From positions 1-38,629 of the forward strand of contig NZ_JAMXOT010000168.1 of NCBI RefSeq assembly GCF_024220515.1: 38,629 nucleotides of DNA, written 5' to 3'. The position numbers and the translations under genes are program-made. Numbering within the stretch: position 1 is the first letter of the stretch; the number at the start of each line of letters is the position of its first letter. The DNA comes from Oscillatoria sp. HE19RPO (GTDB lineage: Bacteria > Cyanobacteriota > Cyanobacteriia > Cyanobacteriales > Laspinemataceae). The notes below the pieces were generated by a model. That model had not been told where the DNA came from. It saw only the letters and a list, made by a program, of their open reading frames with translations, and did not search any database. Of this stretch, positions 21,140 to 38,629 are shown in pieces.

Positions 21140-21240
21140 TGGAGGAGAGCAGGAGAGGGATGGGGGAGATGGGGAGGATGGGGGAGATGGGGGAGATGGG
21201 GAGGATGGGGGAGATGGGGAGATGAGGAGGATGGGGTGGA
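21140..21240. repeat. G-rich minisatellite (GGGGAGGAT/GGGGGAGAT units)
   Basis: About 100 bases of near-tandem 9-base units such as GGGGGAGAT and GGGGAGGAT lie between wzm and wzt. The same units flank the palindromic elements at 37317-37613. The 77-aa frame across it is low-complexity and not a gene. Confidence 0.85.
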
Positions 21241-21259
21241 GAAATTAGTAACAACAGTT

Positions 21260-21340
21260 TGTAGTAACGACTTCAGTCGTTATCTCCCCCATCCTTCATC
21301 CTTCATCCTTCATCCTTCATCCCCCATCCTTCATCCTTTA
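21260..21340. repeat. GTAGTAACGACTTCAGTCGTTA palindrome plus ATCCTTC tandem repeats
   Basis: TAACGACTTCAGTCGTTA (21265-21282) forms an AACGAC/GTCGTT hairpin. It is followed by CTCCCCC and about seven 7-base ATCCTTC units. The palindrome and its GTTTGTAG lead-in match the elements at 37387-37412 and 37531-37561. Together with the G-rich minisatellite this forms a third, partial copy of that element. Confidence 0.8.
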
Positions 21341-21348
21341 TTCTTAAT

Positions 21349-36570: not shown

Positions 36571-37200
36571 ATGAAACAGATGATTAATTGGCTGAAAAAT
36601 ATTAGCCTTCGACAAATTTTAACCGGAATGATGGCTGGACTGCTACTCTTCGTCGGGACTGCTTGTAGCAATACCCCGTCTGTCATGGCCAAAACTTCGG
36701 ACCAGGTGAGAGAAGAAATGCCCTCCAAGTACGTCAACTCCACCTATGAAGGGGGGATGAACGAGTATCCAGATACGGACCCCCGACAAGAGGCGACGAA
36801 CCGCGCTGAATCCAAAGCCAAAGCCCTCAGAGATAGCGCCGAACGTCGGATTAAAGACGATTCCCGGACCTATCCGGACAAAGACCTTGGCGAGATCCTC
36901 GAAGAAGTCCCCGGACAAGTCTCTAAAATTGGCGATCGCGCTGAAAATGCCGCAGACGAACTGGGCAAACACGCCAAAGCCGGGGCCAATTTAGCCGAAG
37001 AAACTGGGGAAACTGCCGCTGAAAATACCCGAAACACGATTAACAAAGGTGCTCAAAAAGCAGCCCGGGAAGCAGATAAACTCGGCAATAAAGCCCAAAA
37101 CACCGCAGAAAACGCCACCGACGCGGTTAAATCTAAAGTGAAGACCGACCTGGATCGTTCCGGTAAAGCCCTAGAACGGACAGCCGATTCTATTGACTAG
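36571..37200 (+). CDS. Small DUF6658-like lipoprotein, helical and LEA-like
   Basis: The 209-aa protein has a signal region (ISLRQILTGMMAGLLLFVGT) ending at Cys32 in GTAC, a loose lipobox, so it is probably lipid-anchored outside the plasma membrane. TSDQVREEMPSKYVNSTYEG and GMNEYPDTDPRQEATNRAES resemble the cyanobacterial DUF6658 family as I recall it. The second half (about 85-209) is very Ala/Lys/Glu/Asn-rich amphipathic helix (AENAADELGKHAKAGANLAE), like late-embryogenesis-abundant stress proteins. AAGGAG lies 6 bases before the ATG, a hairpin sits in the leader and a strong terminator follows, so it is probably a highly expressed single-gene unit. The role is likely stress or envelope protection, by composition only. 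Confidence 0.82.
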   Translation: MKQMINWLKNISLRQILTGMMAGLLLFVGTACSNTPSVMAKTSDQVREEMPSKYVNSTYEGGMNEYPDTDPRQEATNRAESKAKALRDSAERRIKDDSRTYPDKDLGEILEEVPGQVSKIGDRAENAADELGKHAKAGANLAEETGETAAENTRNTINKGAQKAAREADKLGNKAQNTAENATDAVKSKVKTDLDRSGKALERTADSID

Positions 37201-37264
37201 ACTCTAACCTTATATGTTAGAGCAACTGGCAGTTCAGGCTAAATCAGCCTAACTCGCCATCCCC

Positions 37265-37293
37265 AGAGGCACAGCAGTGCCTCTATTTTTTTT
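37265..37293 (+). terminator. Rho-independent terminator of the lipoprotein gene
   Basis: AGAGGCAC AGCA GTGCCTCT is followed by A and eight T residues, 65 bases after the stop. A second hairpin, CTCTAAC/GTTAGAG (37202-37222), lies directly behind the stop. Confidence 0.88.
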
Positions 37294-37316
37294 GAAAACA
37301 TCGTTTGAGGAGGATG

Positions 37317-37613
37317 GGGGTTTCGGGAGGATGGGGGAGATGGGAGAGATGGGGAGGATGGGGAGGATGGGGAGGATGGGGGAGATTGTTTGTAGTAACG
37401 ACTTCAGTCGTTGCTCTCGTGTCATGGCGATCGCCATGACACGCACCATGAGCGGCTTTAAGCTCTAGTCCCCAAACAGGCAGGTGGTAGAGCCTACAAT
37501 TGCTCGTGTTATGGCTTTAGCCATAACACGAGAGCAACGACTGAAGTCGTTACTACAAACAATCTCCCCCATCCTCCCCATCCTCCCCATCTCTCCCATC
37601 CTCCCAAAACCCC
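37317..37613. repeat. Inverted pair of palindrome/minisatellite elements
   Basis: The left arm (37317-37443) consists of 9-base G-rich minisatellite units, a GTAGTAACGACTTCAGTCGT palindrome and a 26-base perfect palindrome (CGTGTCATGGC / GCCATGACACG, centred on GCGATCGC). The right arm (37505-37613) is the same in reverse, with CGTGTTATGGC / GCCATAACACG as its hairpin. A 61-base spacer separates them. The arms differ by minisatellite unit number (about 18 bases) and by a compensated base pair in the hairpin. No coding capacity is seen; Pro/Leu-rich frames across it are artefacts. Confidence 0.9.
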
Positions 37614-37661
37614 TTTCCTTGCCTGTTAAGGATAAATGACATTTATGGTAAAATACGGTTT

Positions 37662-38405
37662 ATGTACGACCGTGACCTAAGCGCACTAAATCTCGATGAT
37701 GAGCTAGATAGCCCTCTGGATCATTTGGATGAGGCACCTGCCCCCAAGCCGGATCCTGAGAAAATGTTGCTATTGTTAGCGTCATCTGTTCCCGAACAGC
37801 GAATGATCGCGACGCGGGCATTCTGTGAAATCCAGGATGAACGCGCCATCCCCCACCTGATCCAACTGTTGAGCGACCCTTGCCCCCTCGTGCGGGTGAG
37901 TGCCGCCTACGCCCTTGGACGCAATACCAGTCCCGATGCCGTCGAACCCTTAATCGACCGGCTAAATTTGGATTGGAACGGCTACGTTAGAAAGGGTGTC
38001 GTTTGGGCATTGGGAAATTGTGCCGATCGCCGCGCCCTCGAACCCCTCCTCGAAGCCCTGAAAACCGACATTTCCGCCGTCCGCCTCTGGGCTGCCAGTT
38101 CCCTAGGTCAACTGGCGAATGTCGGCTACGAGCTCGTTATTTCGGCCATTCCCCCCCTCATTTACAGCCTGCGAACCGACCCCATTGCCGCAGTCCGAAG
38201 TAACTGCGCCTGGGCGATCGGGCAACTCTGCCGCGAACTCCCCTCGAATGTGGTGTATGCCGGGGCGATCGACTCCCTAATCGAAGTCCTAGAAGAAGAC
38301 GAAGACATGGGGGTTCGGGAAGATGCCAAAGCCTCCTTACTCCGAGTCGGAGACCCTCGCGGATTACAAATCATCGAGGAATTAGAACTCGATGGTTTAT
38401 TGTAA
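37662..38405 (+). CDS. HEAT-repeat protein (PBS-lyase-like repeats)
   Basis: The 247-aa soluble protein starts with an acidic leader (about 1-40, LNLDDELDSPLDHLDEAPAP). About six HEAT-like helical repeats follow (about 45-235), such as DERAIPHLIQLLSDPCPLVR, VSAAYALGRNTSPDAVEPLI and VRKGVVWALGNCADRRALEP. This repeat type occurs in phycobilin lyase subunits (CpcE-like) and in many scaffold proteins. No CpcF-like partner or phycobiliprotein gene is nearby, so a lyase role is not supported. A general protein-interaction role is the safest call. The ATG at 37662 has no clear ribosome binding site. A hairpin follows 33 bases after the stop. Confidence 0.88.
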   Translation: MYDRDLSALNLDDELDSPLDHLDEAPAPKPDPEKMLLLLASSVPEQRMIATRAFCEIQDERAIPHLIQLLSDPCPLVRVSAAYALGRNTSPDAVEPLIDRLNLDWNGYVRKGVVWALGNCADRRALEPLLEALKTDISAVRLWAASSLGQLANVGYELVISAIPPLIYSLRTDPIAAVRSNCAWAIGQLCRELPSNVVYAGAIDSLIEVLEEDEDMGVREDAKASLLRVGDPRGLQIIEELELDGLL

Positions 38406-38455: not shown

Positions 38456-38490
38456 AAGAAACTTTACTCATAAAATTTAGCATCAGTCAT

Positions 38491-38629
38491 CACAATCAAG
38501 AACACTTCCGGTCCCCTCCCCTTGCCAAGGGGAGGGTTAGGGTGGGGTCCTCACAATCAAGAACACTTCCGGTCCCCTCCCCTTGCCAAGGGGAGGGTTA
38601 GGGTGGGGTCCTCACAATCAAGAACACTT
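38491..38629. repeat. 61-base tandem repeat, truncated by the window edge
   Basis: Units begin at 38491, 38552 and 38613 and are identical as far as visible (two full copies and 17 bases of a third). Each contains CACAATCAAGAACACTTCCG, then a CCCTCCCC/GGGGAGGG hairpin and GGTTAGGGTGGGGTCCT. The array continues beyond the window. Confidence 0.92.

What the first reader, a model, noticed from the sequence alone, without database searches (positions are those of the whole stretch)
37317..37613. Inverted palindrome/minisatellite pair with a compensated base change
Two copies of one composite element face each other across 61 bases. Each has 9-base G-rich units, an AACGAC/GTCGTT palindrome and a 26-base hairpin. 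In one copy the hairpin arm reads CGTGTCATGGC and in the other CGTGTTATGGC, and the opposite arm changes with it (ATGAC versus ATAAC). The fold is therefore kept while the sequence drifts, which suggests selection on structure or palindrome-restoring repair. One copy is centred on a HIP1 octamer.
Basis: seen in the sequence. Interest (0 to 1): 0.65.

Follow-up and report, generated by a model that had tools for sequence, protein, structure and literature searches.

The report
REP-pair mobile repeat with flipping hairpins
This is one of many copies of a small repeated DNA element in a cyanobacterium, probably spread by a separate transposase; its two inner hairpins keep matching arms while their tips flip back and forth between related genomes, which makes it a natural test bed for how palindromes are kept up.

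Summary
The element is a head-to-head pair of GTAG-tagged REP palindromes with a ~120-base spacer carrying two hairpins: a REPIN-type element. The exact REP pattern occurs 1123 times in this genome. The same REPs flank a REP-associated tyrosine transposase (RAYT) gene here and in G003, and sit beside it in G006. Within the genus (Laspinema, inferred), REP number follows that gene in 7 of 8 genomes.

The compensated change generalises: in 39 copies, 13 of 33 tested pairs change on both sides; 0 of 500 shuffles reach that. But the window's two hairpins are two different half-types, not one element drifting.

New here: hairpin loops invert. In 88 comparisons of orthologous hairpins, 16 loops are identical, 16 exact reverse complements, none merely reversed or complemented; 10 are identical and self-complementary, 46 unrelated. 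Two inversions accompany a two-sided stem change. REP loops rarely flip (2 of 202); two non-REP hairpins flip.

Best reading: a RAYT-linked REPIN whose hairpins are kept palindromic largely by strand-switch copying. Selection on the fold and exchange between copies are not excluded.

The parts
37325..37386 (+). G-rich 9-base minisatellite reading into the left REP
   Evidence: Tandem Repeats Finder period 9. Among 109 dimers such arrays lie on both sides in 50, one side in 32, neither in 27; none has the C-rich strand reading into the REP.
37388..37412 (+). left REP: GTTTGTAGT tag plus AACGAC-TTCA-GTCGTT hairpin
   Evidence: pattern GTTYGTAGTAACGACTTNAGTCGTT has 1123 matches in the genome
37418..37443 (+). 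inner hairpin in the X slot, loop GATC (HIP1-centred)
   Evidence: stem covariation over 39 copies
37444..37504 (+). 61-base linker; holds the family's asymmetric centre CTAGTCCCCAAACAGG at 37465-37480
37505..37530 (+). inner hairpin in the Y slot, loop TTTA (stem extends to 37503-37532)
   Evidence: stem covariation over 39 copies
37536..37560 (-). right REP, inverted, tag outside
37562..37605 (-). inverse copy of the G-rich array
21257..21281 (+). solo REP of the same family elsewhere in the window

Best explanation
A REPIN-type non-autonomous element: two GTAG-tagged REPs in inverted, tags-outside orientation with a spacer holding two hairpins and an asymmetric linker. Its REPs are those of a RAYT (Y1/HUH-type transposase) encoded elsewhere in the genome, which most likely spread it through single-stranded DNA (REP-RAYT association shown; spreading inferred). 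The inner hairpins are kept palindromic mainly at the DNA level: during replication, copying switches between hairpin arms or strands, rewrites one arm from the other and can turn the loop round (loop inversion shown; the molecular step inferred). REP loops hardly flip, probably because the RAYT reads them and because their stems are shorter (inferred). Exchange between copies or re-insertion sometimes swaps a whole hairpin (replacement shown; cause inferred).
For: REP arrays on both sides of the RAYT gene in G000 and G003 and on the side held in G006; the G000 protein passes the NCBIfam REP_Tyr_transpos cut-off, 94.9 against 80 bits. REP counts 1123, 876 and 603 in the three genomes with the ortholog, 106, 102, 33 and 27 in four without. 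Two-sided stem changes in 13 of 33 pairs, 78 cells, 0 of 500 shuffles. Loops: 522 reverse-complement pairs against 9 reverse-only and 18 complement-only. Orthologs: 16 identical, 16 inverted, 0 in each control class; 2.7 inversions expected from the loop pool. Inversion with a two-sided stem change in L044/L106 and L043/L154. Two distinct non-REP hairpins inverted. Inversions also seen against G004, assembled in 3 contigs.
Against: 46 of 88 ortholog loops are neither same nor inverted, and of 18 comparisons with only two-sided stem changes 14 have unrelated loops, 3 the same self-complementary loop and 1 an inverted loop, so copy exchange may explain many paired changes. G005 has 910 REPs with no close RAYT ortholog found (87% complete). 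Tandem REP neighbours (116) outnumber head-to-head ones (48) in the fetched loci. No excision or insertion event was seen, and no clean empty site. Ortholog comparisons are not independent (29 sets, 48 slots).
Confidence: 0.65

Rival explanations
1. Selection on structure: the inner hairpins act as RNA or single-stranded DNA structures, and paired changes arise one side at a time while selection removes mismatches.
For: Strong covariation; all but a few stem cells paired; one-sided changes do exist between orthologs.
Against: Loops are free to invert and change, there is no Rfam match over the element (window and five loci), and non-REP hairpins invert too. None of this excludes selection on the stem alone.
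Confidence: 0.2
2. Exchange between copies: gene conversion or re-insertion replaces whole hairpins, so paired differences only reflect older half-types and no local palindrome repair is needed.
For: L113 and L148 share 96.5-98.3% identical flanks but have unrelated X hairpins. The window locus holds dissimilar dimers in G000, G003 and G005 (spacer identity 0.53-0.61). Most two-sided changes go with unrelated loops.
Against: Inverted loops at orthologous slots exceed what a draw from the pool gives (16 against 2.7), and orthologous spacers are mostly one insertion (median identity 0.83 against 0.59 for other pairs).
Confidence: 0.12
3. A single recent inverted duplication of no wider meaning.
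For: Long inverted arms; the 12 bases outside the two REPs match in the window copy, as in 7 of 108 dimers (1.8 expected).
Against: 186 BLAST matches in the same genome and dimers in 7 of 8 genus genomes.
Confidence: 0.01

Closest known systems
REPIN (REP doublet forming hairpin) and RAYT, Bertels and Rainey 2011 (PMC3116915; passages read)
   Same: Two inverted REPs, conserved REP ends, less conserved spacer, long single-strand hairpin, specific RAYT nearby.
   Different: Here the spacer is longer, with two hairpins that covary and invert; tandem REP neighbours outnumber inverted ones in the fetched loci.
GTAG-tagged REPs, HH dimers and REPtrons, Di Nocera and others 2013 (PMC3733652; passages and sections 12 and 16 read)
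   Same: GTAG end, hairpin, tags-outside dimers, dimer spacers with hairpins, REPs flanking RAYT genes, cyanobacterial families.
   Different: Cyanobacteria monitored in section 12 are Anabaena, Nostoc and Cyanothece, not this genus; loop inversion is not in the passages I saw. I could not compare with their figure consensus sequences.
Template-switch mutations in hairpins, PNAS 2022 (PMC8794818; passages read)
   Same: Instantaneous compensated changes and loop inversions. They name compensation with loop inversion as the strongest support and list 6 such cases, plus 69 loop inversions only.
   Different: They studied RNA genes, whose loops are conserved; here hairpins are in a repeated non-coding element and inverted loops are as common as unchanged ones between orthologs (self-complementary and unrelated loops set aside).
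Hairpin-linked small inversions in chloroplast DNA (PMC2903610; passages read)
   Same: A loop flanked by inverted repeats flips recurrently, even within species.
   Different: Long loops in single plastid spacers; here 4-base loops in many dispersed bacterial copies.
Small dispersed repeats of Nostoc, Elhai and others 2008 (seen only as a reference; content recalled)
   Same: Recalled: tiny cyanobacterial elements with compensatory changes, often embedded in heptamer tandem repeats or HIP1.
   Different: Recalled as 21-27 nt; not compared by sequence here.

Membership tests
REPIN / GTAG-REP HH dimer | two REPs in inverted orientation, tags outside | tested here: met
   Window copy; 42 head-to-head pairs with gaps of 60-160 in the fetched G000 loci, 39 of them oriented by a shared centre.
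REPIN / GTAG-REP HH dimer | GTAG tag next to a short hairpin | tested here: met
   225 of 251 REP copies carry GTAG at the tag position.
REPIN / GTAG-REP HH dimer | same REP flanks a RAYT gene | tested here: met
   Both sides in G000 and G003, the side held in G006.
REPIN / GTAG-REP HH dimer | inverted doublets predominate over tandem pairs | tested here: not met
   Neighbours closer than 200 bases: 116 tandem, 48 head-to-head, 19 tail-to-tail, in loci chosen for dimers. So I call it REPIN-type: the dimers are REPINs in structure, but the family also forms tandem arrays.
REPIN / GTAG-REP HH dimer | excision or transposition of the doublet | not testable with these tools
   Needs population sequencing.
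REPIN / GTAG-REP HH dimer | presence or absence at orthologous sites | tested here: inconclusive
   Window locus in 8 genomes: different dimers, a single REP, other inserts, or a short site with a C-rich remnant; similar at L063.
RAYT | REP-associated tyrosine transposase model | tested here: met
   NF047646 94.9 bits against cut-off 80; PF01797 27.3 against 23.
Template-switch hairpin evolution | exact loop inversion with intact stem | tested here: met
   16 of 88 ortholog comparisons, 9 with identical stems.
Template-switch hairpin evolution | loop inversion together with a compensated stem change | tested here: met
   L044/L106, and L043/L154 which also has a one-sided change: 2 of 88.
Known structured RNA | Rfam match over the element | tested here: not met
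   Window and L002, L004-L007: one hit only, CRISPR-DR28 in L002:1792-1815, outside the dimer at 1581-1731.

The most novel reading that the evidence does not exclude
The dimer is a self-rewriting palindrome: an activity tied to the element (RAYT nicking at the flanking REPs, or forks stalled by the REP pair) drives strand switching inside its hairpins, so that stems are re-copied and loops inverted much faster than point mutation, while REP loops stay fixed by RAYT recognition.
Probability: 0.15. Interest if true: 0.8.

Novelty: new variant of a known kind. Interest (0 to 1): 0.55.

Why it matters
Whether paired stem changes come from selection or from copying one arm off the other is an old question in RNA and palindrome evolution. 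PMC8794818 named compensation plus loop inversion the strongest evidence and found it very rare in RNA genes (passages). This element offers many hairpins per genome with little-constrained loops and with internal controls: REP loops that hardly flip, and non-REP hairpins that flip sometimes. Since inverted loops are as common as unchanged ones between orthologs, the process could be measured directly in population sequence data or a reporter.

Tried and rejected
Rejected: a unique recent duplication; a known Rfam RNA (window and five loci); HIP1 as the defining centre (25 of 197 hairpins); homogenisation of the whole outer palindrome, because the left and right letters of GTTYGTAG look uncorrelated (30 TT, 30 CT, 26 CC, 22 TC of 108) and outer flanks match only slightly better within a dimer than between dimers; insertion of a dimer inside a continuous G-rich array, because no dimer of 109 has the C-rich strand reading into a REP.

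Led nowhere: target-site duplications, as no clean empty site was found. At the window locus G001 is short (167 against 463 bp) but keeps a C-rich remnant; at the L063 locus G001 has a single symmetric REP. A search for the 2008 paper on small cyanobacterial repeats found only papers citing it.

Limits: dimers were fetched because they matched a REP-pair pattern or BLAST, so they are not a random sample, and not every copy was fetched. Of 42 head-to-head pairs, three were left out of the alignment (two with 77-base gaps, one, L047, not oriented). In the ortholog test 16 of 104 slots were dropped (13 weak stems, 3 loops not of 4 bases). In one search, 26 of 66 non-REP hairpins were not found in the relative; four rows read inverted, of which two are one hairpin seen twice and one I take for the neighbouring dimer's hairpin, leaving two distinct cases; one more loop is one base from inverted. 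In one search I checked 47 of 80 RAYT loci, with no shuffle control. The binomial P treats related comparisons as independent.

Full report
WHAT IS THERE. The finding is accurate. From the left the window element is: G-rich 9-mers, GTTTGTAGT, AACGAC-TTCA-GTCGTT, a 26-base hairpin, a 61-base linker, a second 26-base hairpin, then the inverse REP and inverse array. The core 37386-37562 folds far better than shuffles as DNA and as RNA (z -15.06 and -16.89). It lies between an ORF ending at 37200 and an ORF starting at 37662.

FAMILY. The 361-bp region gives 186 matches in its own genome. The exact GTAG-tagged REP pattern has 1123 matches there, both strands together. Of 291 genomes drawn from the order, 12 hold the pattern: 8 of 8 in the genus, and 4 of 283 outside it with one or two copies each. 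The REP-pair pattern occurs in 7 of 59 genomes searched (own genome included), all in the genus (7 of 8), and in 0 of 51 outside; some matches of this pattern are overlapping tandem REPs and not dimers. The G003 contig with the RAYT (364,837 bases) has the length of a named contig of Laspinema palackyanum D2a with the same match, so the genus is inferred to be Laspinema.

TRANSPOSASE LINK. Six Y1_Tnp matches are in the genome. One, at C104, is flanked on both sides by arrays of this palindrome, and its protein passes the NCBI model for REP-associated tyrosine transposase. Its orthologs (95% and 94% identity) sit between REP arrays in G003, and beside an array on the side held in G006. Genomes with the ortholog have 1123, 876 and 603 exact REPs. 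Four without it have 106, 102, 33 and 27. G005 is the exception: 910 REPs and no close ortholog found, in an 87% complete draft. Of 80 related RAYT loci fetched I checked 47: 31 have a GTAG-tagged hairpin within 450 bases, many with a loop of the form TTNA (or its inverse) closed by C-G (no shuffle control). So the REP belongs with that RAYT. That the RAYT moves the dimer is inferred from related systems (PMC3116915, PMC3733652, passages).

ANATOMY OF THE DIMER. Of 42 head-to-head pairs in the fetched G000 loci, 39 could be oriented by a shared asymmetric centre resembling CCAGTCCCCAAACAGG. The X half often has a GTKACTTGGC hairpin, the Y half a GTGTCATGGC, GTGTTATGGC or GTGTGATGGC hairpin, with other types too. 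The window copy has GTGTCATGGC in the X slot and GTGTTATGGC in the Y slot; so do L041, L104 and L141, and nearly L103 (L041, L103 and L141 are one orthologous site).

COVARIATION. On the 39-copy alignment the 33 stated pairs are 96.3% standard. Thirteen pairs and 78 cells change on both sides (shuffled means 6.6 and 21.8; 0 of 500 shuffles reach either), and sliding partners by 1-3 columns lowers every measure. All two-sided changes are in the two inner hairpins. The REP stems barely vary and say nothing either way. The structure was read from these sequences, which favours it over the slid versions.

LOOP INVERSION. In 109 dimers from six genomes, the 182 four-base loops with stems of at least 9 of 10 pairs form 522 reverse-complement pairs, against 9 reverse-only and 18 complement-only. 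For 52 orthologous dimer pairs, 88 slot comparisons give 16 identical, 16 inverted, 10 identical self-complementary and 46 other loops, and none in the reverse-only or complement-only classes. Loops drawn from the pool would give 2.7 inversions (binomial P about 1e-8 if comparisons were independent, which they are not). Ten of 48 slots in 29 ortholog sets carry an inversion. Two inversions come with a two-sided stem change: L044/L106, where GTTACATGGC-TGAA corresponds to GTGACATGGC-TTCA with the opposite arm following, and L043/L154, which also has a one-sided change. Among identical, not self-complementary loops, none of 16 goes with a two-sided change. Inversions are also seen against G004, assembled in three contigs, which speaks against assembly error but does not exclude it.

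CONTROLS. REP loops read TTCA, TTTA or TTGA in 200 of 202 GTAG-tagged copies and TGAA or TAAA in 2. REP stems are shorter, so RAYT recognition and geometry may both contribute. Non-REP hairpins in the flanks gave 18 unchanged loops, 2 unchanged self-complementary, 16 changed otherwise, and two distinct inverted loops, one of 7 bases. Inversion is therefore not confined to the element. The outer palindrome is not homogenised as a whole, though the window copy is one of 7 of 108 dimers whose outer 12 bases match at 11 or more positions (1.8 expected).

MINISATELLITE. G-rich arrays read into the REP on both sides in 50 of 109 dimers, on one side in 32, on neither in 27; the opposite strand never does. 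Among 201 REPs of the G000 loci, 56 have the G-rich and 2 the C-rich strand reading in. Of 149 such arrays 56 lie within 150 bases of a REP, so the arrays are a repeat of their own with a polar association. At the L060 site G004 has TTGGTCA-type heptamers instead. I have no tested explanation for the polarity.

OTHER PROCESSES. Orthologous spacers are mostly one insertion (median identity 0.83 against 0.59 for other pairs). Some hairpins were replaced outright (L113/L148, flanks 96.5 and 98.3% identical), and the window locus holds dissimilar dimers or other inserts in different genomes. Of 18 comparisons with only two-sided stem changes, 14 have unrelated loops, 3 the same self-complementary loop and 1 an inverted loop. 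This points to a mix of copy exchange and strand-switch copying, whose shares are not settled.

MECHANISM. Shown: REP-RAYT association, family structure, covariation, loop inversion between orthologs. Inferred: mobility by the RAYT; strand switching or hairpin-mediated inversion in replication as the cause; RAYT recognition as the brake on REP loop flipping. Selection for the fold remains possible and could act alongside. What the inner hairpins do for the element, if anything, is unknown; my guess is that they are passengers of the spacer that persist because they are easily re-copied.

NOVELTY. REPINs, dimer spacers with hairpins, hairpin-linked small inversions and template switching are known separately (PMC3116915, PMC3733652, PMC2903610, PMC8794818; passages or named sections read, none in full). 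My searches showed no report of loop inversion in REP elements, but they cover only an open-licence library and I saw mostly listings. I rate it a new variant of a known kind.

Noticed in passing
L012:881-1293 and L012:1929-2121: The RAYT has GTAG-tagged REPs on one side and, on the other, REPs with the same hairpin but a GTTCAACGTC tag (CGTC-like). PMC3733652 section 16 says CGTC repeats are not associated with transposase genes.
   Followed up: partly
window 21159-21345: Solo REP at 21257-21281 with G-rich 9-mers on its left and CATCCTT heptamers on its right.
   Followed up: partly
window 38486-38629: A 61-base tandem repeat (2.4 copies, 98% matches) running into the contig end.
   Followed up: no
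L092-L102, the site orthologous to window 37200-37662: The same intergenic slot holds different inserts in eight genomes: different dimers, REP arrays, a single REP, or nearly nothing.
   Followed up: partly
L060 site compared with L192 (G004): Flanking arrays are G-rich 9-mers in one genome and TTGGTCA-type heptamers in the other, inverted on the two sides in both.
   Followed up: no
L011, L013, L014: Three other Y1_Tnp genes lie beside other repeated palindromes (AGAAACCCGGTTTCT, GGGCGATTCGAGAATCGCCC and GTAGGGGCGCAATGC types), probably their own REP families.
   Followed up: no
L002:1792-1815: An Rfam CRISPR-DR28 match just above threshold (36.4 against 35 bits) near a dimer; not examined.
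   Followed up: no
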